This document shows positions 1 through 3,478 of a DNA stretch of 35,205 nt, piece by piece. The notes below the pieces were generated by a model. The model was not told the DNA's origin. It was given only the letters and a program-made list of their open reading frames with translations, and did no database searches. The stretch comes from a candidate division FCPU426 bacterium. Lineage in GTDB: Bacteria; Oederibacteriota; Muellerivitia; Muellerivitales; Muellerivitaceae. Numbering within the stretch: position 1 is the first letter of the stretch; each line of letters starts with the position of its first letter. Both the position numbers and the translations under genes were made by a program. The stretch spans positions 1-35,205 of the forward strand of contig JASHNQ010000098.1 in the NCBI GenBank assembly GCA_030041545.1, given 5' to 3'.

Positions 1-112
1 CGTTTACCCTCACCGCCGCGTAAATACTGCGCTTGTGGACGTCCAAACCAACGTACACAAGGTCTTTCTTTCCAATTCCAACCTTCCTGTTTTTCGTGCT
101 ACGCTTTTCCAT
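1..112 (-). CDS. IS110-family transposase, N-terminal fragment (runs off the window)
   Basis: Read leftwards from an ATG at 112-110, this frame gives 37 codons before the window edge, including the motif YVGLDVHKRSIYAAV. A GLDVHK-type sequence near the N-terminus carries the first acidic residue of the DEDD RuvC-like catalytic core of IS110-family transposases (family knowledge). A strong ribosome binding site, GGAGGAA, lies at 118-123 on the minus strand, 6-7 nt before the ATG. Only the 5' end is present, so intactness cannot be judged. IS110 elements lack classical terminal inverted repeats and use a structured non-coding RNA from the element end to choose donor and target DNA. The 5' non-coding side of this gene lies inside the window and is strongly structured (see 114-174). 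The family call is fairly secure despite the short fragment. Confidence 0.8.
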   Translation of the reverse strand, partial: MEKRSTKNRKVGIGKKDLVYVGLDVHKRSIYAAVRVN

Positions 113-113
113 A

Positions 114-174
114 CCGTTCCTCCTGTGAGTGGGCTACTCACGCCGGGGCTTACTTTACCCCGGCGGAGGAACGG
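114..174 (-). promoter_or_regulatory. Three-way-junction RNA fold enclosing the transposase ribosome binding site
   Basis: A perfect 10-bp outer stem joins 114-123 (CCGTTCCTCC) with 165-174 (GGAGGAACGG). Inside it are two perfect hairpins, 125-130 with 136-141 (GTGAGT/ACTCAC) and 142-148 with 158-164 (GCCGGGG/CCCCGGC). On the transposase mRNA the GGAGGAA ribosome binding site is the 3' strand of the outer stem, so it would be hidden when folded. The fold could be a translational lock on the transposase, part of an IS110-type guide (bridge) RNA, or both. The pairings are seen directly; the functions are inferred. Confidence 0.6.
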
Positions 175-185
175 CCTGCATACTA

Positions 186-393
186 CCTAACAAAAATACA
201 AACTCTTACCACAAAGTTCACGAAGGACACAAAGTGAAGCATGGAAACCTCGGGAAAACATAAGGTTTTTAACTTCGTGTCCTTTGTGCCGATTCACCTT
301 AAAGGAGTTAATGAAATCGGTACTATACCGACCTCTTTAACAGCTTTATGGAAGGTCGGCATGTGTACTTCGTGGTGAGCGTTTTTTGTTAGG
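186..393. repeat. 208-bp nested palindromic element with 11-bp terminal inverted repeats
   Basis: CCTAACAAAAA at 186-196 is exactly complementary to TTTTTGTTAGG at 383-393. Inside lie further pairs: ACCACAAAGTTCAC-type sequence near 208-221 against GTGTACTTCGTGGTGAG near 364-378, CACGAAGGACACAAAG against its near-complement around 270-290, and CCGACCT/AGGTCGG in the right half. The inner words belong to the CACGAAG family seen elsewhere in this window. No convincing target duplication is visible. It holds no open reading frame of note, so it looks MITE- or REP-like. Confidence 0.55.
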
Positions 394-404
394 GACTCTT
401 AGAC

Positions 405-495
405 TGCCCTCATTCACATTGTTTAATTCGGGCTCCGCCCGATGAAGGTAATGAGGGCAATACAGTTTTCTTTATGGGACCGAAGGTCCCATTTA
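405..495 (+). repeat. Dispersed hairpin repeat A, copy 1
   Basis: This block begins TGCCCTCATT (405-414), which pairs perfectly with AATGAGGGCA at 450-459. Between them sits the hairpin TCGGGC-TCC-GCCCGA (428-442). A second hairpin, ATGGGACC-GAA-GGTCCCAT, spans 474-492. The block aligns with the reverse complement of 33041-33135 over its whole length, including both hairpins and the shared word GTTTTCTTT. It is therefore a dispersed repeat rather than local low complexity. Confidence 0.65.
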
Positions 496-504
496 ACCTT
501 GAAA

Positions 505-568
505 AACCGCATGGGGTTGCCGCGTCGTAAACGCCTCGCTATTCGCGGGGCACTCCTCGCAATGACAG
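505..568 (-). repeat. TCATTGCGAGGAG-type dispersed repeat
   Basis: Read on the minus strand the block contains GTCATTGCGAGGAG (566-553) and, further on, CGACGCGGCAACCCCAT (527-511). This combination is a familiar intergenic repeat word in many bacterial genomes (from memory, not searched). It abuts repeat A and fills the space before pyrD. Confidence 0.5.
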
Positions 569-625
569 CCTCAAATTTTCTTCACGGTGGATTTTTAGGT
601 TTTTCGGAATTATCCTGAACCCACC

Positions 626-1699
626 TTGTACCGAATCCTCAAACCCATCCTCTTTTTCCTGGACCCGGAATGGGCACACCACGCGGCCCTGGCGTCCCTG
701 AAGCTCTCCAAACCCCTCCTCTCCCTGTTCTCCCCCCGGCTGGCCGTCAAGGATGCGCGGCTGATCCGGATGGTTTTCGGCCTCAAGTTCCCCAACCCCG
801 TGGGCCTCGCCGCCGGGTTGGACAAGGAAGGGGAACTGGCCGACGTGTGGGGAAAGCTGGGGTTCGGCTTCGCCGAGCTGGGCACCTTCACCGCCCATCC
901 CCAGGAAGGGAACCCCCGCCCGAGGGTTTTCCGGCTGCCCGCCCAACAGGCCCTCATCAACCGGATGGGGTTCCCCAATTCCGGCGCCATGGCCGCCGCT
1001 CAAAGGCTTTCGGCCCTGCGGCAATCGGGCCGCTGGCCTTCCATCCCCATCGGCATCAACATCGGAAAGAGCAAGCTGGTCCCCTTGGAAGAGGCCGTGG
1101 AGGATTACCTGGAGTCGCTTCAGCACCTGCTGCCCTATGCCGATTACGTGACGGTGAACGTCAGCTCCCCCAACACGCCCAGCTTGAGGAAACTGCAGGA
1201 AGCCAAGCCCCTGAAAAAACTGCTCAACGCCATGGTGAAGGCCGCCTCGGGCAAGCCCGTGTTGGCCAAGCTGGCCCCGGACTTGGAGGAAAAACCCCTG
1301 CAACAGGCGGCGGATATCGCGCTATCCACCGGCTGCGCGGGGTTGGTCGCGGTCAATACCACCCTTTCCCGGGAGGGTTTGCCGCCGGGCGTATATCCGG
1401 ACGGGGGGCTTTCGGGCGCCCCGCTGGGGGAAAAGGCCTTGAGGACCCTGGAATCCCTTGCGCGGTTTACGAAGGGAGGGGTGCCCCTGGTCTCGGTGGG
1501 GGGCATCTTCACCCCCGGGGACGCGCGGCAAAGGCTGGAGGCCGGGGCCAAACTGGTGCAGGTTTACACGGCTTATATATATGAAGGACCCCGCCTGCCG
1601 GCGCGTTTATGCCGAGGATTATTGGAAAAACCAACATTCAACACGACTCGTTGGCCTTTGGCCAAGGGCAGTAAAAACCACGAGCCACTAAGAAAATAA
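626..1699 (+). CDS. pyrD: Dihydroorotate dehydrogenase, class 2 (quinone-dependent)
   Basis: PyrD oxidises dihydroorotate to orotate in pyrimidine synthesis, and class 2 enzymes pass electrons to membrane quinones. The 357-aa product has the class 2 layout. An N-terminal amphipathic membrane-associating region (YRILKPILFFLDPEWAHHAA) is followed by the FMN barrel with GLAAGLDKEGE, NRMGFPNSG, VNVSSPNTPSLRKLQ (containing the catalytic serine of class 2), KLAPDLE, VAVNTT and VSVGGIFTPGDA. The start is TTG at 626: the frame is closed by a stop at 596-598 and the N-terminal motif begins right here. No clear ribosome binding site is visible. After the usual ending (VQVYTAYIYEGP plus a helix) there is an extra tail of roughly 20 residues whose last codons lie in a CACGAAG-type repeat, suggesting the original stop was lost to repeat sequence. 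rlpA follows 8 bp later; pyrF and pyrE are nearby. Confidence 0.95.
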   Translation: MYRILKPILFFLDPEWAHHAALASLKLSKPLLSLFSPRLAVKDARLIRMVFGLKFPNPVGLAAGLDKEGELADVWGKLGFGFAELGTFTAHPQEGNPRPRVFRLPAQQALINRMGFPNSGAMAAAQRLSALRQSGRWPSIPIGINIGKSKLVPLEEAVEDYLESLQHLLPYADYVTVNVSSPNTPSLRKLQEAKPLKKLLNAMVKAASGKPVLAKLAPDLEEKPLQQAADIALSTGCAGLVAVNTTLSREGLPPGVYPDGGLSGAPLGEKALRTLESLARFTKGGVPLVSVGGIFTPGDARQRLEAGAKLVQVYTAYIYEGPRLPARLCRGLLEKPTFNTTRWPLAKGSKNHEPLRK

Positions 1700-1767
1700 G
1701 GTAGAGCATGACTCATCCAAACCTAAAAAAAAACAAACGCTGTTCTTTGTGGCTTTGTGCCTTCGTG
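1677..1767. repeat. CACGAAG-family inverted repeat spanning the pyrD end and rlpA start
   Basis: AACCACGAGCCACTAAGAAA near 1677-1696 pairs imperfectly with TTCTTTGTGGC at 1743-1753, and the right side continues as TTTGTGCCTTCGTG to 1767. The same word order recurs at 3476-3568, 13777-13874 and 16639-16719. Here the left arm encodes the end of PyrD and the right arm encodes the hydrophobic signal peptide of RlpA. Confidence 0.55.
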
Positions 1768-2208
1768 TTGGCCTTGGGGGGATGCGTGCCCATACGGCAA
1801 TACGTGCCCGCCCGACTGGCCTCGCCCGGCTCCCCGGCCCCGTCCGGCGGGCCGGTACAATACGAAAGCCCCGACGACTTCAAGCACCTGGACAAGGACG
1901 CGTGGAAAAGTGAAATGGAAGGCATCGCCTCCTGGTACGGGGAGGAGTTCAACGGACGTCTCACGGCCAGCGGCGAGGTTTACGACATGTACAAAATGAC
2001 CGCGGCCCACAAGACCCTGCCCCTGGGCACGGTGGTCAAGGTGACCAATGAGGAGAACGGGAAGGCGGTGGAAGTGACGATCAACGACCGGGGACCCTAC
2101 GTGAAGGGCCGCATCATCGACCTGTCCAAGACGGCCGGGCGCGCCATCGGCATGCGGGAAGCGGGAACGGCCAGGGTGAGGCTGGAGATCGTGAGCTGGC
2201 CGAAGTAA
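1708..2208 (+). CDS. rlpA: RlpA-like septal ring lipoprotein (DPBB peptidoglycan-binding/lytic enzyme)
   Basis: RlpA proteins are outer-membrane lipoproteins acting on denuded peptidoglycan at septa, and some are lytic transglycosylases. The 166-aa product has a lipoprotein signal with lipobox LALGGC (Cys26), a short Pro/Ser/Gly-rich spacer, then a double-psi beta-barrel at about residues 72-165. That domain has the family signatures [30 protein letters not shown] and INDRGPY...[15 protein letters not shown]. There is no C-terminal SPOR domain, so it is a short form. The ATG at 1708 follows AAGGTAG closely. Notably, the codons of the signal peptide core ([11 protein letters not shown]) coincide with one arm of a CACGAAG-type repeat. 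It is probably co-transcribed with pyrD. Confidence 0.9.
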
Positions 2209-2224
2209 GGCAGGGATCACGTGT

Positions 2225-2297
2225 CGGGTATCAGGTTTCAGCAAGGCGTCTGGAACACGGATGAATATCTTTTGCTGATACCCGAGACCTGAAACCT
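2225..2297. repeat. CAGGTATCAGG-family palindromic repeat
   Basis: CGGGTATCAG (2225-2234) and CTGATACCCG (2275-2284) are perfect inverted repeats. A second pair, AGGTTTCAG (2233-2241) and CCTGAAACC (2288-2296), is offset from the first. The same words recur at 5421-5475 and 14676-14745. The element fills the gap between the convergent ends of rlpA and the zinc-ribbon gene. Confidence 0.6.
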
Positions 2298-2302
2298 TGG
2301 CT

Positions 2303-2476
2303 TTAGCCGGAGACTTTCATCTCTTGACGCTTCTTCATCTCGTGCTCGGTTTCCAAAAGGCAGGGCCTGCAGAAATACCATCCGTCCTGGTTCACGATGC
2401 TCTTGCCCAGGACGCCCTGGAGCTTGCAGAAATCGCACTCTTGGAAAATGGACTCAGCGGCGGCCGGCGCGTTCAT
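2303..2476 (-). CDS. 57-aa zinc-ribbon protein
   Basis: On the minus strand an ATG at 2476-2474 is preceded by GGGAGG and opens a 57-codon frame ending at 2303. The product has two knuckles, ECDFCK (Cys14, Cys17) and FCRPCL (Cys36, Cys39), followed by a charged helix-like tail rich in Glu and Lys. Two CxxC pairs 19-22 residues apart are the classic layout of a structural zinc ribbon. It stands alone on the minus strand between rlpA and pyrF, so context gives no function. It might be a small regulator or an accessory subunit. The ribosome binding site, GC-rich codon use and spaced cysteine pairs argue it is real. Confidence 0.7.
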   Translation of the reverse strand: MNAPAAAESIFQECDFCKLQGVLGKSIVNQDGWYFCRPCLLETEHEMKKRQEMKVSG

Positions 2477-2601
2477 GGGGGACCTCCCGGTTCATTCAAT
2501 GTCGGCGCAAGGATACCGCCGGGCCATTAAATACCTGTAACGCTCGCTGGAACCTTTCGTTACAATGACGGGAAATTAACCGGCAAAAAGGCGCCGGCGA
2601 G

Positions 2602-2629
2602 TTAAGACCAGGCGGGCAATCAATATAAT
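2602..2629 (+). promoter_or_regulatory. Probable sigma-70-type promoter for pyrF
   Basis: TTAAGA (2602-2607), a 16-nt spacer, then a perfect TATAAT (2624-2629). The predicted start lies about 25 nt upstream of the pyrF ATG, leaving a short leader containing GGAG. Confidence 0.5.
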
Positions 2630-2659
2630 TTTTCCGGCAAGGGCGGAGCGGACGGAATC

Positions 2660-3478
2660 ATGGCGACTTTTTCCGAGCGGCTTCGGAAGGCGATCCAACG
2701 CACGGGCGGTTGCCTCTGCGTGGGTTTGGACGTGGAACCGTCCAAGATGCCCAAAAACGTTCCCAGGGACGGCGAGGGCGTGCTGCGGTTTTGCCGCTCC
2801 ATCATCGATTCCACTCGGGATTTGGCCGCGGCCTACAAGCCCAACATGGCCTTCTTCGAATCCATGGGCGTGCGGGGCCTGGAAACCCTGGAGCTGCTGC
2901 GCCAGTCCGTGCCGCAGGACGCGCTGTTCGTCATGGATGCCAAACGGGGGGATATCGGAAATACTTCCCAAGCCTACGCCAGGGCTTTTTTCGGCCTTTT
3001 CAAGTCCGACGCGGTCACCCTTTCGCCCTACATGGGCAGGGATTCGGTCGACCCCTTCCTGGAGTATGAGGGAACCTGCTCGTTCGTTTTGTGCCTCACC
3101 TCCAATCCCTCGGCAGCCGATTTCCAGACCCAGGCGCTGCAAAGCGGCGAGAAGCTTTATGAAAAAGTGGCCAAGGCCGCCTTGGAATGGGGCCGGGGCA
3201 AAAAGGGGGAGGCCGGCTTGGTGGTGGGGGCCACGCAGGCCCAATGCCTTTCGGACCTGCGGAAGCTGGCGCCGGAAGCCCCCTTCCTGGTGCCGGGCGT
3301 GGGAGCCCAAGGGGGCGACCTGGGGGCCTCCTTGAAGGCGGGGCGGGCGGGGGACGGCTATGGGATCCTGGTGAACGTGTCCCGGCAGGTATTGTATGCT
3401 TCGCCCGACAACGATTTCGCCAACGCGGCCCGCGAACAGGCGCAAAAGATCGTAAACGAGATGAAAACATATTTCTAA
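2660..3478 (+). CDS. pyrF: Orotidine 5'-phosphate decarboxylase (subfamily 2)
   Basis: PyrF decarboxylates OMP to UMP, the last step of de novo pyrimidine synthesis. The 272-aa length fits the longer OMPDC subfamily 2 rather than the roughly 230-aa E. coli type. Key residues are visible: CVGLDVEP (Asp23), the Lys60 region AYKPNMAFFE, and the charged catalytic array MDAKRGDIGNT (Asp93, Lys95, Asp98). The C-terminal phosphate-gripping region includes LVPGVGAQGGD and YGILVNVSRQVLYAS. The start ATG 2660 has GGAG about 13 nt upstream and a promoter-like sequence before that. The stop codon TAA forms the first bases of the inverted repeat that separates pyrF from pyrE. Confidence 0.96.
   Translation: MATFSERLRKAIQRTGGCLCVGLDVEPSKMPKNVPRDGEGVLRFCRSIIDSTRDLAAAYKPNMAFFESMGVRGLETLELLRQSVPQDALFVMDAKRGDIGNTSQAYARAFFGLFKSDAVTLSPYMGRDSVDPFLEYEGTCSFVLCLTSNPSAADFQTQALQSGEKLYEKVAKAALEWGRGKKGEAGLVVGATQAQCLSDLRKLAPEAPFLVPGVGAQGGDLGASLKAGRAGDGYGILVNVSRQVLYASPDNDFANAAREQAQKIVNEMKTYF

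What the first reader, a model, noticed from the sequence alone, without database searches (positions are those of the whole stretch)
114..174. IS110-type transposase start hidden in a perfect three-way junction; possible guide-RNA segment
A 10-bp outer stem encloses two perfect hairpins, and its 3' strand (on the mRNA) is the GGAGGAA ribosome binding site itself. IS110-family elements encode a structured guide RNA in a non-coding end (established knowledge), and for one subgroup that end lies upstream of the transposase gene, as here. The fold may combine translational control with part of that RNA.
Basis: partly seen in the sequence, partly recalled or inferred. Interest (0 to 1): 0.55.

Follow-up and report, generated by a model that had tools for sequence, protein, structure and literature searches.

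The report
Transposase start hidden by element's end
The folded segment is the left end of a jumping gene of the RNA-guided IS110 family: one arm of the fold is the element's own end repeat and the other is the ribosome-binding site of its transposase gene, so it probably keeps the transposase switched down, while the guide RNA appears to lie at the opposite end of the element.

Summary
The fold is real (window 114-174; z -5.8 as read, -7.8 on the mRNA strand). It is the left end (LE) of an insertion sequence whose only complete copy found is on contig C64. In all seven left junctions found the segment lies inside the element. The 5' non-coding part is 74 nt; the 3' part is about 224 nt and holds a predicted bridge/seek RNA. 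Its target loop has 8-nt matches to both sides of the insertion site, in the IS1111 order (0 of 20,000 shuffles); its donor loop resembles the element's own junction. The guide-RNA idea is therefore not supported for this segment. In 6 of 7 left junctions the element sits at the end of a MITE-like repeat.

The fold's 5' arm overlaps the LE subterminal inverted repeat (sTIR); its 3' arm is the Shine-Dalgarno (SD) sequence. Two relatives (56% and 38% identical transposase) keep a three-way junction over the start, the second with unrelated sequence. Start-region fold-back exceeds chance (p<=0.05) in 17 of 33 hand-picked IS110-family loci. Most likely function: keeping transposase translation low, as shown for ISPpu9. 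Nothing was tested experimentally. Verdict: new variant of a known kind.

The parts
1..186 (-). left end (LE) of the IS110-family element; first element base is 186; the rest of the element is lost at the contig start
   Evidence: Comparison of 7 left junctions; 100% identical to contig C64 over window 1-190
1..112 (-). first 37 codons of the transposase gene (356 aa in the complete copy)
113..186 (-). 74-nt 5' non-coding leader
114..174 (-). three-way junction of the leader RNA: outer stem 165-174 with 114-123, two inner hairpins
168..177 (-). LE subterminal inverted repeat AGGCCGTTCC; overlaps the 5' arm of the outer stem
   Evidence: 10-bp inverted copy GGAACGGCCT at the right end of L008, 208 nt after the stop; 4 of 100 shuffles as long
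114..123 (-). Shine-Dalgarno arm GGAGGAACGG, 3' arm of the outer stem
   Evidence: sequence; folds
180..185 (-). putative -10 box TAGTAT of the circle-junction promoter (partner TTGCGG in the right end, 17-bp spacer)
   Evidence: junction printed; boxes and spacing judged by eye, no promoter scan was run on the junction
187..188 (-). inferred core dinucleotide AG at the left junction
187..402 (.). MITE-like repeat whose terminal inverted repeat (here TTTTTGTTAG) is the insertion target; many copies in the genome

Best explanation
The segment is the left end of an RNA-guided insertion sequence of the IS110 family with IS1111-type layout: short 5' and long 3' non-coding ends, a 10-bp subterminal inverted repeat, and target guides in IS1111 order. 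In the transposase mRNA the sTIR at the 5' end folds back onto the Shine-Dalgarno sequence and, with two hairpins between them, forms a three-way junction that hides the ribosome binding site and keeps transposase translation low, both in read-through transcripts and probably in transcripts from the circle-junction promoter. The guide (bridge/seek) RNA is encoded at the other end, after the gene, and directs insertion to the ends of a MITE-like repeat. Shown by sequence: layout, boundaries, sTIR, predicted fold, guide matches, target. Inferred: the sTIR's role in recombination, promoter activity, RNA processing, translational repression.
For: Boundaries: 7 left and 8 right junctions in the genome. 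A genome of the same genus (G005) lacks both repeat and element at the orthologous place, and there the sequence continues into the flank seen beside the right end on contig C13. Layout: 5' NCR 74 nt, 3' NCR about 224 nt. sTIR of 10 bp here and 12 bp in L042. Target guides: 8 nt on each side; joint order and spacing in 0 of 20,000 shuffles. Donor guides in L042: 8 and 8 nt, 0 of 20,000. Fold: z -7.75, -6.91 and -5.53 in L008, L042 and L051, each a three-way junction over the start region; the three transposases form a clade with 98/98 support. Occlusion: mean unpaired probability of GGAGGA is 0.001 for 5' ends at element bases 1-15, 0.17 at base 18 and 0.84 at base 20. Breadth: pairing of the start region with upstream sequence at p<=0.05 in 17 of 33 loci and at p<=0.01 in 13 of 33, against 3 of 19 and 0 of 19 long open frames of the window (Fisher 0.017 and 0.0018). 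Precedent: mutations weakening the 5' UTR fold of ISPpu9 raised reporter activity 26-fold (PMC8450116, passages).
Against: No expression data. Only one relative close enough to align was found (L042), and its outer stem is almost the same sequence as ours, so change of sequence with the stem kept rests on L051, L070 and L043. For L051 the duplex test is just short of 5% (16 of 300; 26 of 500). 16 of 33 loci show no significant pairing, among them L072-L075. The 33 were hand-picked (23 plasmid loci out of 4143 matching records), their start codons were judged from annotation or by eye, and several of the 17 are related to one another, so the Fisher values are optimistic; control starts were chosen by a simple SD score. 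Singly, our donor matches are weak (7 nt in 15 of 300 and 5 nt in 115 of 300 shuffles), and the left target guide of L042 does not match its flank beyond TTAG. The sTIR of L008 is reached in 4 of 100 shuffles. The motif GL-P----SG, given for IS1111 in PMC11187229, is present but also in L044, L031 and L032, so it does not discriminate here. The junction promoter boxes fit the consensus only in part (TTGCGG, TAGTAT).
Confidence: 0.75

Rival explanations
1. The three-way junction is itself (part of) the guide RNA.
For: It is strongly folded and lies in a non-coding end of an IS110-family element.
Against: The 5' NCR is 74 nt; its two hairpin loops (AAAGUAA and AGCCC) show by eye no match to target or donor flanks (not tested against shuffles); the 3' NCR holds matches to both.
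Confidence: 0.05
2. The fold acts as DNA or as a protein-binding site: the SD arm is a third, internal copy of the sTIR that the transposase binds, giving autoregulation or end recognition rather than ribosome occlusion.
For: The SD arm and the right-end sTIR share the sequence GGAACGG on the same strand.
Against: In L051, where no sTIR was recognised (right end not defined), a stem over the start codon is present with other sequence. In L059, L060, L064, L065 and L066 the longest inverted repeat between the two flanks lies upstream of the arm that pairs with the start (in L065 it is reached in 22 of 100 shuffles), so there the pairing does not use that repeat.
Confidence: 0.15
3. Chance: sTIR and SD are complementary only because both are short and G+C-rich.
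For: Short complementarities are common; 16 of 33 loci show none beyond chance.
Against: 0 of 200 shuffles fold as well in each of three elements; the same topology recurs with unrelated sequence in L051.
Confidence: 0.05

Closest known systems
IS1111-group insertion sequences with seekRNA/bridge RNA (ISEc11, ISPa11, ISKpn4)
   Same: sTIR, long 3' NCR, target matches with the top-strand-complementary guide 5' of the other (PMC11187229: abstract, sections 6, 9 and 12 and passages seen; PMC11208160: passages)
   Different: Its transposase clade (L008, L042, L051) is separate in the tree from the clade holding L070 and L072-L075; whether that clade is the classical IS1111 cluster was not established. 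The parts of the two papers that I saw do not mention a leader fold built from the sTIR.
ISPpu9 (Pseudomonas putida; named an IS110 family member in PMC11208160)
   Same: Structured 5' UTR that likely buries the transposase RBS; inserted into repeated sequences (PMC8450116, abstract and passages)
   Different: ISPpu9 has a long 5' UTR (translation start at +245) and an antisense RNA, Asr9; here the leader is 74 nt and the masking arm overlaps the sTIR
[quoted passage not shown]
   Same: IS1111 family members that target the ends of another mobile element (title seen as a reference; paper itself not read)
IS10/IS50 fold-back protection from read-through transcripts
   Same: Read-through mRNA hides the transposase start (recalled, no call)
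   Different: Different transposase type; here transcripts from the predicted junction promoter would also be closed

Membership tests
IS110 family (DEDD transposases) | DEDD_Tnp_IS110 and Transposase_20 domains | tested here: met
   PF01548 57.3 bits (cut-off 29), PF02371 91.5 bits (cut-off 21.3); NF033542 'IS110 family RNA-guided transposase' 240 bits (cut-off 140)
IS1111 group | subterminal inverted repeats of 7-17 bp | tested here: met
   10 bp exact here (4 of 100 shuffles as long), 12 bp in L042 (2 of 100); length range from PMC11208160
IS1111 group | long non-coding region downstream of tnp | tested here: met
   74 nt upstream, about 224 nt downstream
IS1111 group | guide order: match to the top strand 5' of match to the bottom strand | tested here: met
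   the reverse (IS110) order with 8+8 nt was not found
IS1111 group | GL-P----S(t)G motif | tested here: inconclusive
   Present (GLAPRVRQSG), but also in L044, L031 and L032, so not discriminating in this set
IS1111 group | transposase in the IS1111 cluster of the family tree | tested here: inconclusive
   Tree of 26 rows: own clade with L042 and L051; deepest forks weak. A curated IS1111 reference was not obtained (one search failed).
IS110 group (upstream NCR, IS621-like) | long 5' non-coding end carrying the guide RNA | tested here: not met
   5' NCR 74 nt
Bridge/seek RNA | loops complementary to both strands of target and donor | tested here: met
   Target loop met here; donor loop strong in L042, weak singly in ours
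Bridge/seek RNA | RNA bound by the transposase | not testable with these tools
   needs RNA sequencing of the complex
Leader that occludes the transposase RBS (ISPpu9-like) | RBS paired in the predicted leader fold | tested here: met
   mean unpaired probability of GGAGGA 0.001
Leader that occludes the transposase RBS (ISPpu9-like) | weakening the fold raises translation | not testable with these tools
   needs a reporter

The most novel reading that the evidence does not exclude
The sTIR is a dual-use sequence and the leader is an RNA switch: LE arm, SD arm and right-end sTIR form a three-partner set in which the LE arm can pair either with the SD (translation off) or with the right-end sTIR of a full-length transcript (SD freed), so that transposase would be made mainly from transcripts that also carry the complete guide RNA. 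The calculated LE:RE duplex is stronger than LE:SD in the three elements compared, L008, L042 and L070 (-27.0 vs -23.7, -33.0 vs -25.4, -33.8 vs -28.2 kcal/mol, on hand-cut segments; L051 could not be compared). Fold-back of the transposase start would then be a common design of IS1111-type elements that I did not find described.
Probability: 0.15. Interest if true: 0.7.

Novelty: new variant of a known kind. Interest (0 to 1): 0.45.

Why it matters
IS110/IS1111 elements are being developed as programmable recombinases (abstracts of PMC11208160 and PMC11187229), and of the papers I saw only the ISPpu9 one studies how such an element keeps its transposase low. A leader in which the recombination end doubles as the arm that masks the ribosome binding site would tie end identity to expression. 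The distance in sequence between L008/L042 and L051, with the topology kept, makes it directly testable. The element also gives a natural target and guide pair, and L042 a possible natural retargeting case.

Tried and rejected
Guide RNA in the 5' leader: rejected (see rivals). Known RNA family: no Rfam match with E<=1 in window 1-3000 nor in L008; L042 gave three matches at E 0.28-0.81, all far below their families' gathering scores, none in L008. Close relatives: the genome-contig scan gave two at 27-30%, the viral scan with the L042 protein none, phages 24 records, all under 60% identity, plasmids 4143 records, best 38%; 45 genomes of the phylum gave one at 56%, the other matches outside the own genome at 22-29%. 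Right end of L051: not defined. A covariance model was not built, because only two leaders can be aligned. Universal claim for IS1111: rejected, 16 of 33 loci negative, L072-L075 clearly so. Rows left out of the 33: L034 (truncated), L046 (start of the protein nearly that of L045), L049 and L050 (nearly that of L047). Rows not in the tree: besides these, L054, L056, L057, L059, L060, L064 and L065. Literature: in the listings I saw no title or abstract start that reports an sTIR-SD leader; of four papers I saw abstracts, sections or passages only (PMC11187229, PMC11208160, PMC8450116, PMC2104537); most subscription papers are not in that library.

Full report
What was reported is there. Window 114-123 and 165-174 form a perfect 10-bp stem around two hairpins. 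On the coding (minus) strand the 75 nt of window 186-112 fold at -44.8 kcal/mol, z -7.75, 0 of 200 shuffles as good. The 3' arm, GGAGGAACGG, is the ribosome binding site of a gene whose ATG is at 112.

The element. The contig begins inside the gene. The only complete copy found is L008 on contig C64, with a transposase of 356 aa that matches PF01548, PF02371 and NF033542. Seven left junctions (contigs C31, C19, C96, C81, C21, C87, C64) and eight right junctions (C64, C113, C20, C24, C14, C13, C95, C97) were compared. All seven left ends begin GTAGTATGCAGGCC and carry the whole fold. Six of the seven follow a MITE-like repeat, which ends TTTTTGTTAG in four and TTTTGTTAG in two; the C64 copy follows other sequence ending ACTTAG. 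The eight right ends stop at CATAGCAG and continue AGGYTCTWA in 7 of 8 and AGTCTCTAA in the C64 copy. Of 15 distinct empty repeat ends in the loci held, 3 read AGGYTCT directly after TTTTGTTAG (L009, L011, L017); the other 12 are variants such as TGGTTCTAAG and GGACTCTTAG. The element therefore sits at a core that I read as AG, with 74 nt before the gene and about 224 nt after it.

An orthologous place without the element. In genome G005 of the same genus the locus lacks repeat and element; its sequence runs on into AAATAAGCCTCTTCCC and beyond, which is the flank of the right junction on contig C13. C31 and C13 are thus probably the two sides of one insertion; the window also holds about 110 bases between the shared stretch and the repeat that G005 lacks. 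No close copy of the transposase was found in the other seven genomes of the family; one gave a 29% match.

The guide RNA. Read on the coding strand, the 3' NCR contains ACCAC-GAAGAGCCTCC-GTGCCCAAAAGCAC-GTTTGTTAGGT-GGT. The first internal segment is complementary to the right target (8 nt, AGAGCCTC; 3 of 300 shuffles singly) and the second has the sequence of the left target (8 nt, TTTGTTAG; 11 of 300). Both in this order with 8-30 nt between them occurred in 0 of 20,000 shuffles, and 7+7 nt in 9 of 20,000. This is the order given for IS1111 seekRNAs and the reverse of that of the IS110-family ISEc21 (PMC11187229 sections 9 and 12). A second loop, CTATCT-TGTGCCTTGAGCAC-GAATAGCAG, resembles the donor junction CATAGCAG|GTAG, but singly its two matches are weak (7 nt in 15 of 300, 5 nt in 115 of 300).

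The relative L042 (G029, 56% identical transposase) strengthens the donor loop: it has TGCTACCT and CATAGCAG, 8 nt each to its own junction, jointly in 0 of 20,000 shuffles. Its target loop has other letters; the right guide fits its right flank (7 paired letters, 39 of 300 shuffles) and the left guide does not convincingly fit. The 3' segment is thus the likely guide RNA; the 5' fold is not. Rfam holds no match to either end of L008.

The fold's arms. The 5' arm overlaps AGGCCGTTCC, whose inverted copy GGAACGGCCT lies at the right end (10 bp, 4 of 100 shuffles; 12 bp in L042, 2 of 100). So the element's sTIR provides the arm that covers the ribosome binding site. L042 and L051 (Tritonibacter plasmid, 38%) fold into the same kind of three-way junction (z -6.91 and -5.53). 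In L051 the sequence is unrelated, the outer stem covers the start codon, and no sTIR was recognised, its right end being undefined. The three transposases group together with support 98/98.

How general. I tested pairing between the start region (-22 to +4) and upstream sequence (-130 to -22) against shuffles in 33 loci: 17 at p<=0.05, 13 at p<=0.01. By source: 12 of 23 plasmid loci (fetched by hand from the listings, out of 4143 matching records), 5 of 8 loci from the phylum including the own genome, 0 of 2 from genome contigs. Start codons were taken from annotation or judged by eye. Four rows (L034, L046, L049, L050) were left out as truncated or near-duplicates. The negatives include L021 and L044, which by eye have the longer non-coding region upstream, and L072-L075. 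The control, 19 long open frames of the window with starts picked by an SD score, gave 3 and 0; Fisher 0.017 and 0.0018, without correction for relatedness. Folds of the 33 leaders are printed; two inner branches, as here, are seen in several, one branch in most of the others. By the coordinates the pairing arm overlaps the longest inverted repeat between the flanks in L008, L042, L070 and L043 (and in L055, where that repeat is not significant), whereas in L059, L060, L064, L065 and L066 that repeat lies further out.

Mechanism. The ends joined in a circle would bring TTGCGG in the right end 17 bp from TAGTAT in the left end (sequence, judged by eye; only partial fits to the consensus); L042 has TTGAGG and TAGCAT with the same spacing. 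A start 6-8 nt after the -10 box would be at element bases 13-15, at the first bases of the outer stem, and there the SD remains closed (0.001 unpaired); it opens (0.84) when the RNA begins at base 20. I therefore favour constitutive damping of translation, as supported by mutation in ISPpu9 (PMC8450116, abstract and passages), over protection from read-through only. A bolder reading is competition between the right-end sTIR and the SD arm for the LE arm; energies allow it, nothing shows it.

What is shown and not shown. Shown by sequence: predicted fold, boundaries, layout, sTIR, target, guide matches, recurrence of the topology in two relatives. Inferred: promoter activity, RNA processing and binding, repression, any switch. 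Membership: IS110 family yes; IS1111 layout yes; place in the IS1111 cluster open, and the GL-P----SG motif does not discriminate in this set.

Noticed in passing
window 187-402: A MITE-like repeat of about 216 bp with terminal inverted repeats (CTAAGAG..CCTAACAAAA) and many partial or whole copies in the own genome and in G004 and G005; the source of its mobility was not sought.
   Followed up: partly
window 512-569: A repeat of about 57 bp (CATGGGGTTGCCGCGTCGTAAACGCC...GCAATGACAG) with similar copies in each of the eight genomes of the family; looks like a REP-type dispersed repeat.
   Followed up: no
L021 (G000 contig C69): A second, different IS110-family gene in the same genome, with by eye a longer upstream non-coding region and no start-region pairing.
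   Followed up: partly
L057, L059, L060, L064, L065, L066: Two further groups of relatives in plasmids in which an arm 80-102 nt upstream pairs with the transposase start region; in five of them (not L057) the longest inverted repeat between the flanks lies further out.
   Followed up: partly
L042 right flank and 3' NCR: Target guide letters differ from ours while donor guides are kept, suggesting natural retargeting.
   Followed up: partly
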